From IMG/VR virus record IMGVR_UViG_3300030098_002212, positions 1 through 28,288 of that record: a DNA stretch of 28,288 bases, one strand, 5' to 3'. Under the pieces are notes generated by a model that saw only the letters and a program-made list of their open reading frames with translations, did not search any database and was not told the origin of the DNA. The stretch comes from a virus. A program made the translations under genes and the position numbers. Below, piece by piece: positions 1,756 to 26,354 of the stretch (positions within the stretch are counted from its first letter, which is position 1; every line of letters begins with the position of its first letter).

Positions 1756-2189
1756 GCGTGGTTCAAGAACCTGAAGTAAAGTGGGCACCCGAACAGATGG
1801 TAGAGGTGACACTAAACGAACCAGATGATTTCTTAAAGGTAAGAGAAACTCTCACAAGAATTGGTGTAGCATCAAGAAAGGAAAAGAAGATATATCAATC
1901 ATGTCATATACTGCATAAGCAGGGAAGGTATTTCCTTGTTCACTTTAAAGAATTATTTGCACTTGATGGAAAACATGCTAACCTTACTTCTAACGACGTT
2001 CAGCGTAGGAACCGTATTGCTCAGTTGCTTGCTGATTGGGGATTGGTTGGTATCGTAGATGCTACTAAGATACAAGATATTGCACCTCTAAATCAAATTA
2101 AAGTATTAGCATATAGAGATAAAGGCGATTGGATACTAGAAACAAAGTATAATATAGGTAGCAAGAAGAAAAAAGTTGACGAATCCTAA
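1752..2189 (+). CDS. regA: RegA translational repressor of early genes
   Basis: 145 aa from ATG 1752 with a strong GGAGGA site at 1741-1746. Residues from about 16 onward follow T4 RegA closely: VEVTLNEPDDFLKVRETL, then IYQSCHILHKQGRY, VHFKELFALDGKH and LADWGLVGIV. T4 RegA has 122 aa; this one carries about 15 extra residues at the N-terminus and a lysine-rich tail (GSKKKKVDES). RegA binds the start regions of many early mRNAs, including those for replication proteins and itself, and blocks ribosome binding. Its place directly after gp62 is the T4 arrangement. The 3' end overlaps the phosphorylase gene by 14 bases. Confidence 0.93.
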   Translation: MSVVQEPEVKWAPEQMVEVTLNEPDDFLKVRETLTRIGVASRKEKKIYQSCHILHKQGRYFLVHFKELFALDGKHANLTSNDVQRRNRIAQLLADWGLVGIVDATKIQDIAPLNQIKVLAYRDKGDWILETKYNIGSKKKKVDES

Positions 2190-4566
2190 TAGTCTTTATA
2201 ATGGTATTAATGAACGTCTTTTCTATACATTAGGAAAACGTCCTGACAGTGCTTCACTTCATGATTTTTATATGGCATTAAGTTATGCTGTAAGAGATCA
2301 GATGATGAATTACTGGTTGTCTATGGAACCACCTACTGGAAAGGAGGTGGCATATCTATCTGCAGAATTTTTAATTGGACCACAACTTGGAAATAATCTT
2401 ATAAGTCTTGATATAAAGAAAGAGGCAGAAGAAGCATTAAAATCATTTGGATATACTTTAGATCAGATTTTAGATGTAGCAGAAGAACCTGGATTAGGTA
2501 ATGGTGGTTTAGGAAGACTAGCAGCATGTTATATGGACTCTCTAGCAACCTTACAGGTACCTGCTACTGGTTATGGTATAAGATATAAGTATGGTATTTT
2601 TAAGCAGCAGATAAGGGATAATCAGCAGATAGAAGTTACTGATAATTGGTTACATGGAGAGTGGCCATGGGAACTTTGTCATCCAGACGAATCTGTATTA
2701 GTTGGATTTGGTGGTAAAGTAGAGAACTATGTTTCAGATAGAGGAAATTATAGAGTACGTTGGGTTCCTGACGAACAGGTCATTGCTGTTCCATATGACA
2801 TCCTTCAATTAGGATATAAGGTTAATAACTGTAATAGAATAAGACTTTGGAGAGCAGATGCTACTGAAACATTTGATTTCTATGCATTCAATATAGGTGA
2901 CTATATGGGATCAGTAGAGCAGAGTGTTTCTTCTGAAACTATTTCTAAGGTTTTATATCCTAATGATGGTACAGATGCAGGTAAAGTATTAAGATTAAAG
3001 CAACAACATTTCTTTGTGAGTGCATCTCTTCAAGATATGTTGAGAAGTTTAGATAAGCGTGGATATGAAATAGAAGACTTCCCACATCATTGGCAGGTTC
3101 AGTTAAATGATACTCACCCTGCTGTTGCTGTAGCAGAACTAATGAGACTCCTTGTTGATGAAAGGCATCTTGAATGGGAACAGGCATGGGAAATAGTAAC
3201 TAAGTCTATTGCATATACAAATCATACATTAATGCCAGAGGCATTAGAGAAGTGGGATCTTAAATTATTTAAGACTCTTCTTCCAAGACACATGGAGATT
3301 ATCTATGAGATTAATAGAAGGTTTTTACAGGTAGTTAGACTTCATTATCCTGGCGATGATAGTATGTTGCAGAAGATGTCTATTATAGATGAGAGAGGTA
3401 ATAAGGCAGTTCGTATGGCACATCTTGCTACAGTAGGATCTCATCATGTGAATGGTGTTGCTGCATTACATTCTGAATTAGTTAAGACTCAGTTGATGCC
3501 AGAGTTCTATGATCTATGGCCACATAAGTTTACTAATGTTACTAATGGTGTTACTCCAAGAAGATGGATAGCATCTTCTAATCCAGGACTTACTGAAGTT
3601 CTTAATGATACTATTGGTACTGATTGGGTAACTAATATGGAGTTACTTAATAAGTTGGAGGATCATCAATATGATCCCATACTTAATGAGAAAATTGGAG
3701 AAACAAAGTTACTTGGTAAACATCATTTAGCAACGTATATTTTTGATAATCTAGGTATAGCTGTAGATCCTTCTAGTATGTTTGATGTGCAGGTTAAACG
3801 TATACATGAGTATAAGAGACAGCATTTGATGGCTCTTTGGATTATTGCACAGTATTTGAGAGTTAAAAATGGAGTTGATATTGTTCCTCGTACATTAATA
3901 TTTGGTGGTAAAGCAGCACCAGGATATTATATGGCAAAGTTGATTGTTCAATTTATATGCCATATAGCAGAAGTGGTCAATACTGATCCTGATATGGATG
4001 GTAAGTTGCGTGTGATATTCTTACCAAACTATAGTGTTAAGTTAGGAGAGAAAGTATATCCTGCTGCTGACTTATCAGAACAGATCTCTACTGCTGGTAA
4101 AGAAGCATCTGGTACTGGTAATATGAAGTTCCAAATGAATGGTGCTCTTACTATTGGTACATTAGATGGTGCTAATGTAGAGATACGTGATCTTGTAGGA
4201 GAAGAAAACTTCTTCTTATTTGGTCATGATGAAAAGGGTATATCAGAATTATGGCAAAATGGATATGATCCTAAACATCATATAACTCCAGAACTTTGGG
4301 AAGTTATAAACCTTGTTAAAGGTGGGCATTTTAGTCAGGGAGATAAGGAGAAATTTAGACCTCTAATAGATAATTTACTTAATCATGATCCTTTCTGTGT
4401 GATGGCAGACTTCTCTGATTATTGTGATGCACAAGATCGTGTGAGTAGTGCGTGGAAGAATCGTGATGGGTGGAATAGAATGTCTCTGTTAAATACTGCT
4501 AGATCAGGATTCTTTTCTTCTGATAGATCAATTAGAGATTATTGTGAAAGAATATGGACAATTTAA
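2176..4566 (+). CDS. glgP: Alpha-glucan (glycogen) phosphorylase, GT35 family
   Basis: 796 aa, near the family length of about 800-840. It would use phosphate to release glucose-1-phosphate from the ends of glycogen. Family signatures run in order: LYYTLGK-like NERLFYTLGKRPDSASLHD (residues 12-30), YLSAEFLIGPQLGNNL, GNGGLGRLAACYMDSLAT, QLNDTHPA, NVTNGVTPRRW, VQVKRIHEYKRQ and the PLP site EASGTGNMKFQMN, whose Lys near residue 651 carries pyridoxal phosphate. All expected active-site blocks are present, so it looks functional. The N-terminus is short: the regulatory extension of animal enzymes is missing, as in bacterial forms. The start is a TTG overlapping regA by 14 bases with only a weak purine-rich site; no ATG occurs in frame before about residue 33, which would cut conserved sequence. 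An auxiliary metabolic gene that probably came from a cyanobacterial host. MalP-type specificity cannot be excluded. Confidence 0.96.
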   Translation: MTNPNSLYNGINERLFYTLGKRPDSASLHDFYMALSYAVRDQMMNYWLSMEPPTGKEVAYLSAEFLIGPQLGNNLISLDIKKEAEEALKSFGYTLDQILDVAEEPGLGNGGLGRLAACYMDSLATLQVPATGYGIRYKYGIFKQQIRDNQQIEVTDNWLHGEWPWELCHPDESVLVGFGGKVENYVSDRGNYRVRWVPDEQVIAVPYDILQLGYKVNNCNRIRLWRADATETFDFYAFNIGDYMGSVEQSVSSETISKVLYPNDGTDAGKVLRLKQQHFFVSASLQDMLRSLDKRGYEIEDFPHHWQVQLNDTHPAVAVAELMRLLVDERHLEWEQAWEIVTKSIAYTNHTLMPEALEKWDLKLFKTLLPRHMEIIYEINRRFLQVVRLHYPGDDSMLQKMSIIDERGNKAVRMAHLATVGSHHVNGVAALHSELVKTQLMPEFYDLWPHKFTNVTNGVTPRRWIASSNPGLTEVLNDTIGTDWVTNMELLNKLEDHQYDPILNEKIGETKLLGKHHLATYIFDNLGIAVDPSSMFDVQVKRIHEYKRQHLMALWIIAQYLRVKNGVDIVPRTLIFGGKAAPGYYMAKLIVQFICHIAEVVNTDPDMDGKLRVIFLPNYSVKLGEKVYPAADLSEQISTAGKEASGTGNMKFQMNGALTIGTLDGANVEIRDLVGEENFFLFGHDEKGISELWQNGYDPKHHITPELWEVINLVKGGHFSQGDKEKFRPLIDNLLNHDPFCVMADFSDYCDAQDRVSSAWKNRDGWNRMSLLNTARSGFFSSDRSIRDYCERIWTI

Positions 4567-5234
4567 ATACACCTCCAACTTTAACTGACCAGATATTAAT
4601 TAAAAAGAAATTTTTATCAGAACAACAATGTCAAATTATTATTGACGAGTATGAGAATTTGCCAGGTGAACCTACCAGAGAACATTGTCCCCATGCTTTT
4701 ACTGGAGAAGATACTTGGTCAACCTTTACTATGAAAAATCCCACTACGGGTGGAGAAGCTTTTAAGTTAATTCATAATGCTGTTGAAAAAATGGTATGTG
4801 ATTATCAGGACTATCTTGATACTTTTAATGCTTTTCATGTGATGAGAAGAGTATCATTAATGTATCCACATATGTATCGTATCATGAAATATGATACTGG
4901 TGCATGGATTCATCCCCATGTAGATCATGATCCAGAGGTTTATGGTAGTTGTACTATTAATTTAAATGATGAGTATACTGGAGGAGATTTTGCTTTTTGG
5001 GGTGGTAAGCATAAGGTAAAGTTGGAGAAAGGAGATGCGATGATATGGCCAGCAGATTATTACTGGGTACATGAGGTGGAAGAAATAATGTCTGGATTTA
5101 GGTATTCTGTTAATTGTTTTCTTAGAAGTACTCCATTAACATTATCTGAAGAAAATAAATTTGACGTATGGGTTCCTGATAATATGAAGAAATTTGTAGC
5201 TTGTGATGGAAACCGACCACTAGGATACAAGTAA
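4554..5234 (+). CDS. 2OG/Fe(II) oxygenase, prolyl-4-hydroxylase type
   Basis: 226 aa from ATG 4554, overlapping the phosphorylase stop by 13 bases. The double-stranded beta-helix signature is visible: HPHVDHD (iron ligands His122 and Asp124), a strand pair around YTGGDFAFWGG, GDAMIWPADYYWVHEV (distal iron ligand His173) and GFRYSVNCF (Arg183, expected to bind the 2-oxoglutarate carboxylate). This is the P4Hc arrangement. Members hydroxylate proline or other residues, or small molecules, with O2 and 2-oxoglutarate; the substrate here is unknown. It is one of four members of this fold in the window, all divergent from one another. A -10 promoter motif follows its stop. Confidence 0.85.
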   Translation: MDNLNTPPTLTDQILIKKKFLSEQQCQIIIDEYENLPGEPTREHCPHAFTGEDTWSTFTMKNPTTGGEAFKLIHNAVEKMVCDYQDYLDTFNAFHVMRRVSLMYPHMYRIMKYDTGAWIHPHVDHDPEVYGSCTINLNDEYTGGDFAFWGGKHKVKLEKGDAMIWPADYYWVHEVEEIMSGFRYSVNCFLRSTPLTLSEENKFDVWVPDNMKKFVACDGNRPLGYK

Positions 5235-5239
5235 ACTAT

Positions 5240-5250
5240 TATAATTAGTA
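5240..5250 (+). promoter_or_regulatory. Putative promoter -10 element before hsp20
   Basis: TATAATTAGTA sits between the oxygenase stop and the Hsp20 start. The same 11 bases recur at 5810-5820 in the stronger promoter downstream, which suggests a shared element. No clear -35 box lies 16-18 bases upstream, as is common for cyanobacterial promoters. Transcription would begin around 5252, at the base of a hairpin. Confidence 0.45.
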
Positions 5251-5251
5251 G

Positions 5252-5270
5252 TGTACGCCTTCGGGGTACA
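5252..5270 (+). other. Hairpin with UUCG loop in the hsp20 leader
   Basis: TGTAC-(G)-CC-TTCG-GG-GTACA forms a 7-bp stem with one bulged G and a C(UUCG)G loop, an unusually stable tetraloop. There is no T-run after it, so it is not a standard intrinsic terminator. If the -10 motif at 5240 is used, the hairpin would be at the very 5' end of the mRNA, where such structures slow decay. An AAAGGAG site precedes ATG 5300. Confidence 0.45.
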
Positions 5271-5299
5271 TAATTCACACTCGCTTTTAAAGGAGAACA

Positions 5300-5734
5300 A
5301 TGACTAATTTAGCACAGTACCATTCTGCTAATCTTCCAGAACTAATGAAGATTATCAAACAAAATGGCATAGGTATGGATGATTACCTAGACAGATTTTT
5401 TAATGAACCCTCACAAACAACAAATTATCCACCTTACAATTTAATACAATTAAATAATCATGAATCGAAATTGGAAATCGCACTTGCAGGTTTCAAGAAG
5501 GATGAGCTCAAAGTCTATACGGAGTTTGGAAAGTTATATGTACAAGGCAAGAAAGAAGCAACAGAAGTCGATGGAACGTTTGTCCATAAAGGACTGGCCC
5601 AACGAAGCTTCGAGAGAGTTTGGACGGTCTCCGACGATACAAAGGTTGGATCCGTCGAGTTTGTTGATGGACTCCTCACCGTACAGTTGAACAAGATAGT
5701 TCCAGAGCATCATTCTAGAAAGGACTATATCTAA
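5300..5734 (+). CDS. hsp20: Small heat-shock protein Hsp20 (alpha-crystallin)
   Basis: 144 aa from ATG 5300, preceded by AAAGGAG. The alpha-crystallin domain starts at PPYNLIQLNN near residue 44, continues through KLEIALAGFKKDELKVY and LYVQGKKE, and ends with FVDGLLTVQLNKIVPE; the C-terminal KDYI tail is typical of the cyanophage form. Hsp20 proteins are ATP-independent holdases that keep unfolding proteins soluble; in cyanophages they are widespread, perhaps aiding virion assembly or protecting photosystem proteins. It forms its own short unit: a -10 motif and hairpin upstream and a strong terminator directly after. The second half (about 5480-5720) is clearly richer in G+C than the first. 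Confidence 0.92.
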   Translation: MTNLAQYHSANLPELMKIIKQNGIGMDDYLDRFFNEPSQTTNYPPYNLIQLNNHESKLEIALAGFKKDELKVYTEFGKLYVQGKKEATEVDGTFVHKGLAQRSFERVWTVSDDTKVGSVEFVDGLLTVQLNKIVPEHHSRKDYI

Positions 5735-5762
5735 ATAGAACTGAATATCGTTCGCCGCAGAC

Positions 5763-5804
5763 AGAGGGGAAACTGGCACAATCCAGTTGACACCCCTCTT
5801 TTTT
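5763..5804 (+). terminator. Intrinsic terminator after hsp20
   Basis: AGAGGGG (5763-5769) pairs with CCCCTCT (5793-5799), and AACTGG (5771-5776) pairs with CCAGTT (5783-5788) around the loop CACAAT. A run of six T (5799-5804) follows the stem, partly continuing its last pair. This is the only clear rho-independent terminator seen in the window. Its 3' arm contains the -35 box of the next promoter. Confidence 0.85.
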
Positions 5805-5820
5805 ATTGGTATAATTAGTA
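5787..5820 (+). promoter_or_regulatory. Consensus sigma70-type promoter for the small-gene cassette
   Basis: TTGACA (5787-5792), 17 bases, then TATAAT (5810-5815) with an extended -10 TGG just before it. Both boxes match the bacterial consensus exactly. Transcription would start near 5822, about 15 bases before ATG 5837. It should be read by unmodified host RNA polymerase, so early expression is likely. The -35 box is embedded in the terminator stem for hsp20. Confidence 0.8.
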
Positions 5821-5836
5821 CAGATAAAGTTTTATT

Positions 5837-6007
5837 ATGAGTGAAGACGCTAATCGAATTGCTTCAGCACTGGAAAGAATAGCTACTGCTCTTGAAAAAG
5901 GTGCTCATATAAACATCGATCATGGTCATATAGAGCATATAGATCATGTTGATGCTATTGATAATATTCAGCATGGAGATGTTGATGTTCACAACCATTC
6001 ATTTTAA
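5837..6007 (+). CDS. 56-aa histidine-rich protein
   Basis: A frame from ATG 5837 to TAA 6005-6007, just behind a consensus promoter. The N-terminal half (DANRIASALERIATALEKG) is an amphipathic helix. The C-terminal half contains eight histidines in about 31 residues, alternating with Asp and Ile (HINIDHGHIEHIDHVD... VDVHNHSF). This regular His/Asp pattern could bind metal such as Ni, Zn or Fe, or form a repetitive beta structure; both are inference. Start context is weak in Shine-Dalgarno sequence but the leader would be very short. Function unknown. Confidence 0.7.
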   Translation: MSEDANRIASALERIATALEKGAHINIDHGHIEHIDHVDAIDNIQHGDVDVHNHSF

Positions 6008-6009
6008 TC

Positions 6010-6303
6010 ATGCCTAAAGAAAAAGTACATGTTCCAGTAGTGGAACCAAAAACAACTTCATGTGTAGAATACATTGAACTCGGTAGGACTGTAACTCCTC
6101 AACCAGTATTCAGAAAGGATACTATTCGTGTTAGAGTATTGCAAAGAAGTTTGGGTAATCCAGCAGAAACTTTTGATACAGAAAAGCATTGGGAATATGA
6201 TGTTCCATGGCCTGTTGAAGAAGTTAAGGTTGAGGAAGTAGTTGTAGAGAAGCAACCAGAAAAGAAAACTGTATTGGAAAAAGTAAAGAGGGTAATATTA
6301 TAA
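6010..6303 (+). CDS. 97-aa protein, Val/Glu/Lys-rich C-terminus
   Basis: ATG 6010 follows the previous stop by two bases. The first 70 residues look folded, with beta-prone segments (CVEYIELGRTV, TIRVRVLQRSLGN) and a KHWEYDVPWP stretch; from about residue 70 the chain becomes a charged V/E/K tail (VEEVKVEEVVVEKQPEKK) that is likely flexible. No known domain recognised. The stop overlaps the next start (TAATG), so it belongs to the cassette driven from 5787. Function unknown. Confidence 0.65.
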   Translation: MPKEKVHVPVVEPKTTSCVEYIELGRTVTPQPVFRKDTIRVRVLQRSLGNPAETFDTEKHWEYDVPWPVEEVKVEEVVVEKQPEKKTVLEKVKRVIL

Positions 6304-7191: not shown

Positions 7192-7399
7192 AATTACAGA
7201 AATGGGTACTGCTGATATTGGGCAACCTGACTGTAAATTAACTAATCCTTATGTTCTAACTGGCGATAGGACACTTGAACAATTTTTAATAGGTGTCACA
7301 AGGGATGATGCTTTTATGATAGGATCTGATAAAATACTAACAATAGCAGAACCTACACCTACACTGCTTGAAAAATACTTGGATTTGACTAAGGAATGA
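7127..7399 (+). CDS. 90-aa protein, second of two tandem paralogs
   Basis: ATG 7127 with GGAG at 7116-7119; overlaps its upstream paralog by 65 bases and the polymerase start by 4 (ATGA). Visible blocks are IKLIVLTTGQNLISEITEM, LTNPYVL, then FLIGVTRDDAFMIGSDKILTIAEP and LLEKYLDLTKE. The pattern resembles a small beta-barrel (Sm- or SH3-like) with a C-terminal helix; that fold is a guess. The pair looks like a tandem duplication that later diverged. Possible partner or regulator of gp43 by position only. Confidence 0.7.
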   Translation: MEQEVQTIKLIVLTTGQNLISEITEMGTADIGQPDCKLTNPYVLTGDRTLEQFLIGVTRDDAFMIGSDKILTIAEPTPTLLEKYLDLTKE

Positions 7400-9891
7400 G
7401 ATTTTATACAAACGTTCAGATGGTTGGAGACAACTTCTTGGTACGTGGTTACGAAGATGGTAGACACTTCGCAACCCGTGAGAAGTTTTATCCAACCCTT
7501 TTTGTTGACTCAAAAAAGAAAACGAAGTATAAAACATTAGAGGGTGAATATGTAGAGGCGATTGAACCAGGTACTGTACGTGAAAGTAGGGACTTTATAA
7601 AGAGATATACTGACGTAGAGAATTTTAATATTTACGGTAATGAAAGATTTATCTATCAATACATTTCTGAGAAGTATCCAGAGAAGGAACTCAAGTTTGA
7701 TATTGAGAAGATTAAATTGGTTACTCTTGATATTGAGGTTAAGTCCGAACAAGGATTCCCTGATGTAGAATCTGCTGCTGAAGAGATACTTCTTATATCA
7801 ATACAGGATTATACTACCAAACAGATTAGAACTTGGGGTTTAGGTTCATTTAATAATAAACAAGATAATGTAACATATAAAGGGTTTAGAACAGAGTATG
7901 AACTTCTAAATGATTTTATTAATTGGTGGATGATAGAGGAGAATACTCCTGAAGTTATTACTGGTTGGAACAGTAAACTTTATGATATTCCATACATGTG
8001 TCGTAGGATTGAAAGAATCCTTGGTGAGAAATTAAAGAAACGTATGTCCCCTTGGGGATTGGTAACAGAAGATAGAACTGTTATCATGGGACGAGAGCAT
8101 ATTACATATGATATTGGTGGTGTATCACAGTTAGACTACTTAGACTTATATAAGAAGTTTACTTATAAGGCACAGGAATCTTATCGTTTGGATTATATTG
8201 CTAGTGTAGAACTTGGGCAGAAGAAATTAGATCACTCTGAGTTTGATACATTTAAAGATTTCTATACAAATGGTTGGCAGAAATTTGTAGAGTATAATAT
8301 AATTGACGTGGAACTTGTTGACCGTTTGGAAAGCAAGATGAAGTTGATTGAACTCGCACTCACTATGGCATATGAAGCCAAGGTGAATTATGAGGATGTA
8401 TTCTATCAGGTTCGTATGTGGGACACGATAATTTATAACTATTTAAAGAATAGGAATATAGTTATTCCTCCCAAGAACAGATCACAAAAAAGCGAAAAAT
8501 ACGCAGGTGCTTATGTCAAGGAACCGAAACCAGGAAAGTATGATTGGGTGGTTAGTTTTGACCTCAACAGTCTGTATCCTCATCTTATTATGCAATATAA
8601 TATCAGTCCAGAGACCATCAGGGAGACTAGACATCCCAGTTCGAGCGTTGAAAGGATCTTAAACAAGGAGTGTGAGTTTGATGGAGATTATGCAGTTTGT
8701 GCGAATGGAGCTCAATACAGGAAAGATGTGCGAGGCTTCCTTCCTGAACTTATGGACAAGATGTACGGGGATAGAGTTATATTCAAGAAGAAGATGCTTC
8801 AGGCAAAGCAGCAGTATGAGAAGACACCCACGGAAGCATTGGAGAAGGAGATTGCTAGGTGTAACAATATCCAGATGGCGAAGAAGATATCCCTTAATAG
8901 TGCCTATGGTGCTATTGGCAACCAGTATTTTCGTTACTATAAACTAGCAAACGCAGAAGCGATTACTCTTTCTGGACAAGTATCAATCCGTTGGATTGAG
9001 AATAAAATGAACCAAAAGATCAATAAGATCTTAAAAACTGAGGAGGTTGATTATGTTATTGCTTCAGATACTGATTCCATCTATCTTAATTTGGGGCCTT
9101 TGGTTGAAGCTGTATACAAGGGCAGAGAGAAAACTAATGAGAGCGTTGTTGGGTTCCTTAACAAGGTGTGTGAAAATGAATTTGAGCCTTTTATTGAAGG
9201 TTCTTACCAAGAACTGGCCGACTACGTAGGTGCTTATGATCAGAAGATGTTCATGAAACGTGAGAACATTGCTGAACGTGGTATCTGGACTGCTAAGAAA
9301 AGATACATTCTGAATGTATGGGATAGTGAGGGTGTTCGATATGATGAACCTAAACTCAAAATGATGGGTATTGAGGCAGTTAAATCTTCTACACCAGCAC
9401 CTTGTAGAGCAATGATTAAAGATGCTCTCAAGATAATGATGAATGGAACTGAGGAAGAAGTAATTAATTTTATTGATGACTCTCGTAAGAAATTTAAATC
9501 ACTTCCACCAGAAGATATTGCGTTTCCACGTTCAGCATCTAATGTAGAAAAGTATAAAGCACATGCTACAATCTATGCGAAAGGAACTCCTATACATATA
9601 CGTGGTGCATTGCTTTATAACCATTATGTTAAGCAGAAAAAATTAGATAATAAATATTCTGCTATCGGTAATGGTGAGAAGGTGAAGTTTCTGTATTTAA
9701 AGAAACCAAATATTATTCAAGAGAATGTTATTTCATTCATTCAAGACTTTCCTCACGAACTCGGTCTTGACAGATACATTGATTATGACTTACAATTTGA
9801 CAAGAGTTTCGTGGAACCACTAAAAACTATATTGGATGCAATTGGTTGGAACGTGGAAAAAACTGTAAACCTAGAACTATTTTTCTCCTAA
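7396..9891 (+). CDS. 43: DNA polymerase, family B (T4 gp43-like)
   Basis: 831 aa, the usual size in cyanophages (T4 gp43 is 898). The 3'-5' exonuclease motifs are TLDIEV near residues 111-116 and TGWNSKLYDIPYM near 192. Polymerase motifs follow: A, SFDLNSLYPHLI near 387; B, KKISLNSAYGAIGNQYF near 496; C, ASDTDSIYLN near 557. All catalytic acidic residues (Asp-Ile-Glu, Asp in A, Asp-Thr-Asp in C) are present, so both activities are expected. No intein or split is seen. It is the replicative enzyme, working with gp45 and gp44/62. The start shares ATGA with the preceding gene. A stretch around 8460-8940, covering motifs A and B, is richer in G+C than the rest. Confidence 0.97.
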   Translation: MRFYTNVQMVGDNFLVRGYEDGRHFATREKFYPTLFVDSKKKTKYKTLEGEYVEAIEPGTVRESRDFIKRYTDVENFNIYGNERFIYQYISEKYPEKELKFDIEKIKLVTLDIEVKSEQGFPDVESAAEEILLISIQDYTTKQIRTWGLGSFNNKQDNVTYKGFRTEYELLNDFINWWMIEENTPEVITGWNSKLYDIPYMCRRIERILGEKLKKRMSPWGLVTEDRTVIMGREHITYDIGGVSQLDYLDLYKKFTYKAQESYRLDYIASVELGQKKLDHSEFDTFKDFYTNGWQKFVEYNIIDVELVDRLESKMKLIELALTMAYEAKVNYEDVFYQVRMWDTIIYNYLKNRNIVIPPKNRSQKSEKYAGAYVKEPKPGKYDWVVSFDLNSLYPHLIMQYNISPETIRETRHPSSSVERILNKECEFDGDYAVCANGAQYRKDVRGFLPELMDKMYGDRVIFKKKMLQAKQQYEKTPTEALEKEIARCNNIQMAKKISLNSAYGAIGNQYFRYYKLANAEAITLSGQVSIRWIENKMNQKINKILKTEEVDYVIASDTDSIYLNLGPLVEAVYKGREKTNESVVGFLNKVCENEFEPFIEGSYQELADYVGAYDQKMFMKRENIAERGIWTAKKRYILNVWDSEGVRYDEPKLKMMGIEAVKSSTPAPCRAMIKDALKIMMNGTEEEVINFIDDSRKKFKSLPPEDIAFPRSASNVEKYKAHATIYAKGTPIHIRGALLYNHYVKQKKLDNKYSAIGNGEKVKFLYLKKPNIIQENVISFIQDFPHELGLDRYIDYDLQFDKSFVEPLKTILDAIGWNVEKTVNLELFFS

Positions 9892-12486: not shown

Positions 12487-13097
12487 TGGAGACTTTTAAT
12501 TTATTTCCAACTTTGGTGATGAAATTCTCTTCTGTGATTACAGAATCGGAAAGAATCAATATATTTAATACTCTAAAGGAAAGAGAGTGTTTTAGTCATC
12601 AAACTCTTCCTAATGGTGGAGTGTCATCTCATTTACTCTCTCATCAATCTAATATATTTGATGAATTTGGAATAGCAAATAAAATACAAGAACATCTTGA
12701 TGTTTATTCAAGAACATTATCTATTCCTAATTTGAGGATTGATAATAGTTGGTTTAATATTCAACCTGTTGGTAGTAATTTGGAACAACATTCTCATCCT
12801 TGTAGTATAGCTTCAGCAGCATTGTATATTAATGTGGATCACAATAGTACACCATTAGTTTTTGAAAATCCAAATACGATTGCAGTTTTTAATAATTATC
12901 ATAATTCTGTATCACAGTATAATTGTCAAGCACATTCATTCATACCAGAGAATGGTCAATTGATTATTTTTCCTAGTTGGTTAAAACATGGAAGTTTTGG
13001 TAATAAGAATAATACTGATGCTAGAATGGTTATTAGTTTTAATACCAATTATTATATTGACAATCAAATTCAAATACCTTATAATAGTAGAAAGTGA
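12486..13097 (+). CDS. 2OG/Fe(II) oxygenase family protein (Oxy_5 type)
   Basis: 203 aa from ATG 12486, sharing one base with the gp41 stop. The pattern fits the phage-rich 2OG-FeII_Oxy_5 family: an NSWFNIQPVGSNLEQHSHP block with His102 and His104 as likely iron ligands (H-x-H in place of H-x-D), ALYINVDHNSTPLVFENPN, then GQLIIFPSWLKHGS (distal His168) and ARMVISFNTNYY (Arg180, 2-oxoglutarate). A hydroxylase role is inferred; the substrate is unknown. It stands between gp41 and an unrelated small gene and is more AT-rich than gp41, as expected for a recently gained cassette. Residue Asp is absent at the second ligand position, so metal binding through H-x-H should be regarded as probable, not certain. 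Confidence 0.8.
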   Translation: METFNLFPTLVMKFSSVITESERINIFNTLKERECFSHQTLPNGGVSSHLLSHQSNIFDEFGIANKIQEHLDVYSRTLSIPNLRIDNSWFNIQPVGSNLEQHSHPCSIASAALYINVDHNSTPLVFENPNTIAVFNNYHNSVSQYNCQAHSFIPENGQLIIFPSWLKHGSFGNKNNTDARMVISFNTNYYIDNQIQIPYNSRK

Positions 13098-13106
13098 AAT
13101 TAAGTA

Positions 13107-13421
13107 ATGACCGTTTATCCTTTTTATAGAGTCTTCGATGAAAACGGTGAGCAGTATTGTGACTGTGGATGGGAGAAACATGCACAAGAACTTATCATTC
13201 TTAATCAGACATGTTCTCTTGAATCTGATAGGAAGAACCTAACATATAAAAGAATAGATGCTCCTAAACCAATAGATCCAGAAACAGTTGATGTTGGTGT
13301 AATTCCTACTGAGGAATTACCTGGACAACAGGGATTACCTTCAGCAGTAGAAAGATTACATGCTGATTTGAGAACCGAACATGAAATTGGGTTACCCCAA
13401 AGCGATACCATTGAATTTTAA
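13107..13421 (+). CDS. Conserved 104-aa cyanophage protein
   Basis: ATG 13107, nine bases after the oxygenase stop. The N-terminus (YPFYRVFDENGEQYCDCGWEKHAQEL) includes a C-x-C pair and looks folded; the C-terminal half is Pro/Glu-rich (PKPIDPETVDVGVIPTEELPGQQGLP) and ends SDTIEF. Proteins of this form are frequent upstream of mazG in T4-like cyanophages as far as I remember. The single C-x-C pair is too little for a zinc site alone. Function unknown. Confidence 0.7.
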   Translation: MTVYPFYRVFDENGEQYCDCGWEKHAQELIILNQTCSLESDRKNLTYKRIDAPKPIDPETVDVGVIPTEELPGQQGLPSAVERLHADLRTEHEIGLPQSDTIEF

Positions 13422-25966: not shown

Positions 25967-26354
25967 TACTCCACTGTTAGAAAGATTAGAACGTGTAATA
26001 GATACTCTTAGTGATAACTCAATCAAGATGGGACAGATGCTTGCTGTCCATGATGAGAAACTAGACAAGCAGGATAGAATAGATGCGGTATTATTCGAGA
26101 AAATTGAATCGCTTCATAGAGAAGTCAATCGTTCGACTAAAGAAATTAAGGAGGGATGTGAGAGAGATATTCGCCTTGTAGATAATAGACTCCGTGTAAT
26201 GGAGAAGAAGATGTGGAGTATATTTGGTGCGTTAAGTATAATAAGTTTCGTTGTAAGTCCCATTGGACAAAGAATTGTTGGTGCAGCATTGACACCAGAT
26301 CAACAAACAAGTATAATACCTCAAGAGATTACTCTTGTGAATGGATCTAGTTGA
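25956..26354 (+). CDS. 132-aa coiled-coil membrane protein
   Basis: ATG 25956. A long heptad-type region spans residues 5-85 (LLERLERVIDTLSDNSIKM, FEKIESLHREVNRSTKEIK, RDIRLVDNRLRVMEKK), then one hydrophobic segment (MWSIFGALSIISFVVSPIG) and a 30-residue polar tail (LTPDQQTSIIPQEITLVNGSS). It shares topology and the RLxVxEK junction with the product at 23716. Candidates are a lysis accessory or tail-anchored regulator; no experimental hint is visible. It overlaps the primase gene by 14 bases. Confidence 0.72.
   Translation: MENNTPLLERLERVIDTLSDNSIKMGQMLAVHDEKLDKQDRIDAVLFEKIESLHREVNRSTKEIKEGCERDIRLVDNRLRVMEKKMWSIFGALSIISFVVSPIGQRIVGAALTPDQQTSIIPQEITLVNGSS

What the first reader, a model, noticed from the sequence alone, without database searches (positions are those of the whole stretch)
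5763..5820. Terminator and consensus promoter share bases
The 3' arm of the hsp20 terminator contains the -35 hexamer TTGACA, its T-run lies in the spacer, and an extended -10 follows at exact 17-base spacing. One 58-base element both ends the hsp20 message and starts the next. Read-through polymerase would clear the promoter while termination would leave it free, linking the two units.
Basis: seen in the sequence. Interest (0 to 1): 0.55.

Follow-up and report, generated by a model that had tools for sequence, protein, structure and literature searches.

The report
Conserved cyanophage terminator-promoter RNA element
Many viruses that infect ocean cyanobacteria carry an 85-base switch in which a probable short RNA, the signal that ends it and the start signal for the next genes are packed into the same bases; its sequence is conserved between viruses that place it beside different genes.

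Summary
In detail: TTGACA (5787-5792) lies in the 3' side of a strong hairpin, the T-run is in a 17-base spacer, and TG-TATAAT follows. It is far beyond chance. A conserved unit runs from 5731 to 5815: a late-promoter-like [AC]TAAATA, often sharing the upstream gene's stop codon; a near-invariant TATCGTCGNCGC; then the hairpin terminator with the embedded sigma-70 promoter. blastn matches 287 cyanophage records. It is single-copy in the 13 whole records with a strong match, and sits after hsp20, between hli-type genes and psbA, or after psbA. The RNA part persists where the promoter is missing (S-PM2, Syn9, S-PRM1), and the 3'-arm bulge that carries the -35 then usually shrinks too. Best reading: a late-promoted short RNA of about 62 nt, ended by a terminator that in most copies sampled doubles as a middle promoter, usually before the DNA-polymerase operon. 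Late transcription, the RNA, its target and any coupling are inferred. Read-through coupling is untested and cannot be the only reason for conservation.

The parts
5730..5737 (+). late-promoter-like TATA box (T)CTAAATA; its TAA (5732-5734) is the hsp20 stop codon; predicted late start about 5743-5744
   Evidence: Sequence. A or C precedes TAAATA in 163 of 165 sites. In six whole phage genomes [AC]TAAATA lies 10-60 nt before an ORF of at least 100 aa in 144 of 413 cases, [GT]TAAATA in 22 of 417. The start position is inferred from the T4 rule (passage of PMC2988020).
5746..5758 (+). conserved leader TATCG(T)TCGNCGC, unpaired in the consensus; the window has one extra T
   Evidence: Invariant columns in A1, whose 12 sequences came from blastn; present with at most 2 mismatches in 114 of 116 sites of a scan that did not ask for it, against 2 of 1255 control windows. 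A2 also shows it invariant, but most A2 rows were picked by a pattern containing it.
5763..5804 (+). intrinsic terminator: outer stem 5763-5769/5793-5799, inner stem 5771-5776/5783-5788, loop 5777-5782, 3' bulge 5789-5792, T-run 5799-5804
   Evidence: 156 of 165 sites have a hairpin plus T-run; own arms pair better than swapped arms, -14.1 versus -10.3 kcal/mol over 98 distinct arm pairs.
5743..5804 (+). predicted short RNA of about 62 nt, from the late start to the T-run (inferred, not observed)
   Evidence: Late-promoter-like box and terminator frame it; leader-to-hairpin lengths fall in all three frames, so no reading frame running from the leader into the hairpin is conserved.
5787..5815 (+). 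sigma-70 promoter: TTGACA 5787-5792, 17-base spacer, TG 5807-5808, TATAAT 5810-5815; predicted start about 5822
5300..5734 (+). hsp20 (144 aa), the upstream gene; a transcript running out of hsp20 would end at the same terminator
   Evidence: phrog_432, E = 8.6e-52.
5837..6007 (+). first gene downstream (56 aa, phrog_35332); the run of genes continues to DNA polymerase at 7396-9891

Best explanation
A single-copy, relocatable control cassette of T4-like cyanophages (Kyanoviridae). Late in infection the phage-modified polymerase probably starts at CTAAATA and makes a short RNA of about 62 nt with a conserved unpaired 5' leader and a conserved apical hairpin; the RNA ends at the intrinsic terminator, which also ends transcripts coming out of hsp20. 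In most copies sampled the 3' side of that terminator and its T-run have been shaped to be the -35 and spacer of a host-type extended -10 sigma-70 promoter. Here that promoter starts the genes leading to DNA polymerase at about 5822, downstream of the hairpin, so those transcripts do not meet the terminator. Shown by sequence: the motifs, their positions, their joint conservation, relocation as a unit, and survival of the RNA part without the promoter. Inferred: late transcription, existence of the free RNA, its regulatory role, and use of the promoter in the middle phase.
For: 287 phage records match the 106-base region at E <= 0.01 (161 of them over at least 80% of it), 285 at 80-95% identity. 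Contexts differ: after hsp20, between hli/small-gene clusters and psbA, after psbA. A scan not selecting for box or leader still has [AC]TAAATA in 114 of 116 sites (107 of 1255 control windows) and the leader in 114 of 116 (2 of 1255). A scan not selecting for the promoter has it at 10 of 12 or better in 98 of 120. In the 93 of 120 that fit an alignment pattern, the positions which that pattern leaves free are also conserved: T and G of the TG in 88 and 86, -10 positions 4 and 5 in 83 each. Promoterless copies keep box, leader, hairpin and T-run: Syn9 and S-PM2, S-PRM1. S-PM2's downstream neighbour is convergent and needs no promoter there. Unpaired bases in the 3' arm: at least 2 in 132 of 144 promoter-bearing copies, at most 1 in 10 of 14 promoterless ones, so the -35 bulge costs pairing and mostly goes with the promoter. 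Whole-record search of 19 phage records: 13 have exactly one strong match, 43 bits or more; nine of those 13 supplied sequences to the model. [AC]TAAATA stands before large ORFs genome-wide. Nucleic-acid-metabolism genes are middle genes in cultured cyanomyoviruses (passages of PMC7238727).
Against: No transcript data: neither end of any RNA was seen. Alignment-based covariation was weak: RNAalifold on A2 found only the 4-pair apical helix with a covariation term of -0.01; I put this down to the outer stem shifting register in the alignment, and the arm-swap test (141 of 165 sites parsed) stands in for it but ignores relatedness. No target: leader complements with up to 2 mismatches in 12 picocyanobacterial genomes number 106, against 126 for the reversed pattern. 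5 of 19 phage records have no convincing copy (P-HM2, P-SSM2, P-RSM4, HTVC008M, S-TIM5) and ACG-2014f scores only 34 bits. Four of 14 promoterless copies still have 2 or more unpaired bases in the 3' arm. In Syn9 the T-run directly precedes the start codon of gp213 with no promoter seen, which hints at regulated read-through rather than a stand-alone RNA. In 13 of the 34 scan-2 loci that lack the exact leader pattern the box lies 13-22 nt before the leader instead of about 5-9, so the leader is not always the very 5' end.
Confidence: 0.6

Rival explanations
1. Plain economy: a terminator and a middle promoter overlap because cyanophage intergenic space is short; there is no separate RNA and the TAAATA is incidental or a weak late promoter.
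For: Leaderless compact versions exist: of 791 hairpin terminators in six phage genomes plus the window, 9 carry a promoter of at least 11/12 with the -35 inside the hairpin, against 3 of 5418 T-runs without hairpin; 15 versus 36 at 10/12 or better. The element itself accounts for 3 of the 15 and 2 of the 9.
Against: Does not explain the near-invariant leader and apical loop, the [AC]TAAATA in 114 of 116 sites, or survival of leader plus hairpin where the promoter is missing.
Confidence: 0.17
2. Regulated read-through: leader plus apical hairpin bind a factor that lets polymerase pass the terminator, so the element is an attenuator of the downstream genes, with the sigma-70 promoter as an added entry.
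For: In Syn9 the terminator abuts gp213's start codon with no promoter seen; two metagenomic variants also have a long ORF starting right after a T-run (L106, L107); the leader lies between the late box and the terminator.
Against: In S-PM2 the next gene is on the other strand, and in the hsp20 context 84 of 87 copies supply their own promoter.
Confidence: 0.13
3. Transcriptional interference or recycling: polymerase from hsp20 or the late box terminates on top of the middle promoter, either blocking it late in infection or being recycled into it. The first reader's read-through idea belongs here.
For: The predicted 3' end (about 5804) lies between -35 and -10. Bacterial polymerase often stays on DNA after termination and can restart at a nearby promoter (abstracts of PMC6978322, and PMC11347151).
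Against: Promoterless copies keep the rest of the unit; no measurement available. The restarts reported in PMC6978322 were usually in the reverse direction (abstract).
Confidence: 0.07
4. A DNA element, for instance a replication origin built on a middle promoter.
For: One strong copy per record in the 13 records that have one; lies near replication genes in many phages.
Against: Cumulative GC-skew minima lie 25-69 kb from the element in four of five genomes; only S-SM2's is close, about 2 kb. Hairpin arms are matched to each other.
Confidence: 0.03

Closest known systems
Intrinsic terminator near a promoter, with post-termination recycling of polymerase (PMC6978322 and PMC11347151, abstracts seen)
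   Same: A hairpin-T-run terminator lies at a promoter, so terminated polymerase could be reused.
   Different: Here the two share bases (the -35 sits in the hairpin's 3' side) and are conserved jointly across a group of viruses, with a late box and leader in front.
3'-end-derived bacterial small RNAs with their own promoter (recalled class, not looked up)
   Same: Promoter overlaps the end of the upstream gene; the RNA ends at that gene's terminator.
   Different: Phage late-type box instead of a bacterial promoter; the unit is found beside different genes; the terminator also carries a promoter.
Cyanophage RNAs CfrI, PhotoRC-II, wcaG, manA (passages of PMC12197685, PMC9602691, PMC2864571)
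   Same: Non-coding RNA elements of T4-like cyanophages, some near psbA.
   Different: CfrI is antisense to psbA and about 225 nt; the window has no Rfam match at gathering thresholds and the region none of these at E <= 5. The S-SCSM1 paper reports two non-coding RNAs found by Rfam search, described as cis-regulatory (passages), although S-SCSM1 carries this element.
T4 late promoter (PMC2988020, two passages seen)
   Same: TATA-box-type promoter about one helical turn upstream of the start; that review says a highly similar consensus was identified in silico in cyanophage S-PM2.
   Different: Here the box is followed by a terminator whose T-run begins 62 nt after it (5737 to 5799).

Membership tests
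Intrinsic (Rho-independent) terminator | GC-rich RNA hairpin directly followed by a T-run | tested here: met
   (156 of 165 sites).
Intrinsic (Rho-independent) terminator | RNA 3' end in the T-run | not testable with these tools
   No transcript data available.
Sigma-70 extended -10 promoter | -35, 17-base spacer, TGN-TATAAT | tested here: met
Sigma-70 extended -10 promoter | Transcription start about 7 nt after the -10, active with host polymerase | not testable with these tools
   No expression data.
T4-type late promoter | TATA-box motif of the phage's late promoters | tested here: met
   [AC]TAAATA, the form found before large ORFs (144 of 413 versus 22 of 417); 163 of 165 sites have A or C. 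That those ORFs are late genes was not tested.
T4-type late promoter | Dependence on gp55, gp33 and the gp45 clamp | not testable with these tools
   Needs infection or in vitro transcription.
Phage small regulatory RNA | Own promoter and terminator, conserved and non-coding | tested here: met
   (leader-hairpin length in all three frames), as sequence features only.
Phage small regulatory RNA | Conserved antisense target | tested here: inconclusive
   Leader complements in 12 host genomes: 106 against 126 for the reversed pattern; in phage genomes, outside the element itself, only isolated one-mismatch sites in 3 of 6. Short seeds would be missed.
Phage small regulatory RNA | Expression as a discrete RNA | not testable with these tools
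   No RNA data.
Known Rfam families (PhotoRC-II, wcaG, manA and others) | Covariance-model score above gathering threshold | tested here: not met
   0 matches in the window; the one match at E <= 5 in 5200-6100 is a snoRNA model below its threshold, on the other strand at 5922-5997.

The most novel reading that the evidence does not exclude
A large share of T4-like marine cyanophages encode a previously undescribed late small RNA whose terminator doubles as the middle promoter of the replication operon: a three-layer temporal switch (late box, short RNA, middle promoter) in about 85 bp that has moved between genomic sites as one unit.
Probability: 0.45. Interest if true: 0.8.

Novelty: new variant of a known kind. 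Interest (0 to 1): 0.62.

Why it matters
T4-like cyanophages are abundant and well studied, yet a unit of about 85 bp that matches 287 of their records lies, in many of the records shown, where no feature is annotated. If it makes a late RNA, it is a regulator shared across the group whose target can now be sought. If the overlap couples ending one transcript to starting another, it offers a natural test of whether terminated polymerase is blocked from, or recycled into, an overlapping promoter. Phages with and without the promoter (S-RIM8 versus S-PM2 or Syn9) give a ready-made comparison.

Tried and rejected
Rfam: no known family. Coding leader: rejected, because leader-to-hairpin lengths fall in all three frames (34, 54 and 65 sites) and the window copy has a one-base insertion. 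Replication origin: skew minima do not follow the element. Antisense target in host or phage: nothing above control. Host origin: model R1 finds no copy at E below 0.1 in 12 picocyanobacterial genomes, best E = 0.32; only 150 first-look candidates per genome were scored. A general 'late box directly followed by terminator' class: 8 of 424 [AC]TAAATA versus 8 of 444 [GT]TAAATA, not enriched. Alignment-based covariation: uninformative for the outer stem. The Syn9 transcriptome paper is not held, so its mapped 5' ends could not be checked; what I say of it is recalled.

Rows dropped and limits: four scan-1 loci (L016, L040, L044, L052) were judged chance matches to the leader pattern and left out, but they are still in the counts. 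Three truncated loci were set aside; five loci were not used (three short, one without a T-run found, one too long), where 156 loci plus Syn9 and S-PM2 were counted. In one search, 141 of 165 sites could be parsed into arms. In some searches only 60 rows each were shown, and I fetched 11 of the 287 records. Many records are near-identical isolates, so the counts are not independent.

Full report
WHAT IS THERE. The window is 28,288 bases of a 51,668-base IMG/VR virus record with T4-like cyanophage genes: clamp loader, regA, 2OG oxygenase, hsp20, DNA polymerase, UvsX, helicase. Only 1 of 200 shuffles folds as well. The simple terminator scan did not list it, presumably because its rule has no place for a bulge.

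IT IS HALF OF A LARGER CONSERVED UNIT. blastn against 50,697 phage records matched the 106-base region in 287 records, 285 at 80-95% identity, 161 over at least 80% of the query; in many of the rows shown no feature is annotated there. Conservation runs from 5731 to 5815. Fetched examples place it after hsp20 (S-B43, where about 270 nt lie between, S-SCSM1, S-SM2), between hli or small-gene clusters and psbA (S-RIM8, ACG-2014a, S-RIM2, P-SSM7, S-ShM2, ACG-2014d) and after psbA (S-PRM1). A covariance model gave one strong match (43 bits or more) in each of 13 of 19 whole phage records (the tool's stricter filters may lose weak ones) and one in the window (88.6 bits). Nine of those 13 supplied sequences to the model (L001-L008 and L010), so for them the match itself is by construction, though its being the only strong one is not. 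Of eight records not chosen for carrying the element, Syn9 and S-PM2 match strongly and ACG-2014f at 34 bits; P-HM2, P-SSM2, P-RSM4, HTVC008M and S-TIM5 have no convincing copy.

ANATOMY. (1) [AC]TAAATA: A or C precedes in 163 of 165 sites. In 78 of 122 sites with enough flank its TAA is the stop codon of the preceding ORF, as it is for hsp20 here. In six whole phage genomes [AC]TAAATA stands 10-60 nt before a large ORF in 144 of 413 cases, against 22 of 417 for [GT]TAAATA, so it looks like this phage group's late-type promoter box; a T4 review says a highly similar late consensus was identified in silico in S-PM2 (passage of PMC2988020). That the ORFs concerned are late genes was not tested. 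All 12 matches in the window are on the + strand, against 23.65 expected on both strands in shuffles. (2) Leader TATCGTCGNCGC, where N is G, C or T but never A in 161 copies. (3) Hairpin and T-run in 156 of 165 sites. (4) The sigma-70 promoter.

TESTS THAT DID NOT PRESUPPOSE THE ANSWER. Scan 1 asked only for TAAATA and the leader: of 120 loci, 98 have a promoter of at least 10/12 against 23 of 1160 shuffles, 98 of the 107 with any pair have a spacer of exactly 17, 94 of the 107 have TG, and 13 have no pair. Scan 2 asked only for the apical hairpin and TTGAC: of 116 sites with 80 nt upstream, 114 have [AC]TAAATA (controls 107 of 1255) and 114 have the leader with at most 2 mismatches (controls 2 of 1255). 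So each half predicts the other.

NATURAL EXPERIMENTS. Syn9 and S-PM2 keep box, leader, hairpin and T-run but lack -35 and -10. S-PM2's next gene is convergent. In Syn9 the T-run abuts gp213's start. In scan 1 the promoter (at least 9/12) is present in 84 of 87 copies after hsp20, 5 of 12 in the psbA region and 12 of 14 unassigned, with 3 truncated and 4 judged spurious. Promoter-bearing copies have at least 2 unpaired bases in the 3' arm in 132 of 144; promoterless ones have at most 1 in 10 of 14. The -35 is therefore a separate constraint that the terminator tolerates, and the RNA part is conserved without it.

STRUCTURE. Each element's own arms pair at -14.1 kcal/mol on average versus -10.3 when arms are swapped, over 98 distinct pairs; the sequences are related, so the P value printed there is not to be trusted. 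RNAalifold saw only the apical helix and essentially no covariation; I attribute this to the outer stem slipping register in the alignment.

THE ARCHITECTURE RECURS. Leaderless short versions exist in the same genomes, for example in S-SM2, P-SSM7, S-PM2, P-HM2 and ACG-2014d: of 791 hairpin terminators 9 carry a promoter of at least 11/12 inside, against 3 of 5418 T-runs without hairpins; at 10/12 it is 15 versus 36. The element itself accounts for 3 of the 15 and 2 of the 9.

HOW IT LIKELY WORKS. Late polymerase starts at about 5743, makes a short RNA of about 62 nt and stops at about 5804; transcripts running out of hsp20 stop there too. Host-type polymerase starts at about 5822 and reads into the genes that lead to DNA polymerase. 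Nucleic-acid-metabolism genes are middle genes in cultured cyanomyoviruses (passages of PMC7238727); that cyanophage middle promoters are host-like is recalled from the Syn9 transcriptome paper, which is not held. Because the terminated polymerase would sit between -35 and -10, interference or recycling is possible; bacterial polymerase can stay on DNA and restart after termination (abstracts of PMC6978322 and PMC11347151). None of this is measured.

NOVELTY. No Rfam match. Ten answered paper searches list nothing that describes it, judged from capped listings and the passages read; subscription papers are mostly absent. The parts are each of known kinds; the conserved, relocatable three-layer combination is the new variant.

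Noticed in passing
window 13057-13085 and 26289-26317: Two further perfect TTGACA-17-TATAAT matches without TG, upstream of ORFs at 13107 and 26341 (the latter a primase); neither appears with a terminator in the scan lists.
   Followed up: no
window 1-28288, both strands: [AC]TAAATA occurs 12 times, all on the + strand, against 23.65 expected in shuffles: it seems avoided except in the sense direction.
   Followed up: partly
about L249:7163, L259:17786, L267:4322, L295:764, L287:15388: Leaderless compact terminators with TTGAC in the loop or an arm and a -10 at the right distance, a second class of shared-base terminator-promoter in cyanophages.
   Followed up: partly
L239:2688 (Syn9 gp213 start): Terminator T-run directly abuts the start codon of gp213 with no promoter seen, so expression of gp213 would seem to need read-through.
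   Followed up: no
L106, L107, L131, L079: Variants in which the conserved apical hairpin is separated from the terminator; in L106 and L107 a second [AC]TAAATA comes right before a hairpin-T-run that abuts a start codon.
   Followed up: partly
window 2176-4566: A 796-aa protein of unknown function (phrog_23782, E = 1e-284) sits between regA and a 2OG oxygenase.
   Followed up: no
L353 (PAZU01000034.1): A contig filed as a Euryarchaeota MAG encodes a psbA 91% identical to the phage query; probably a cyanobacterial or phage contig binned wrongly.
   Followed up: no
scan-2 loci such as L158, L159, L187, L152: 13-22 nt, often containing GGCTACC or a similar GC-rich stretch, between TAAATA and the leader in 13 of 34 loci without the exact leader pattern; meaning unknown.
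   Followed up: no
L356's genome (G006): C74, C80, C107, C113: Four identical one-mismatch complements of the phage leader in one picocyanobacterial genome; perhaps a repeated sequence of that genome.
   Followed up: no
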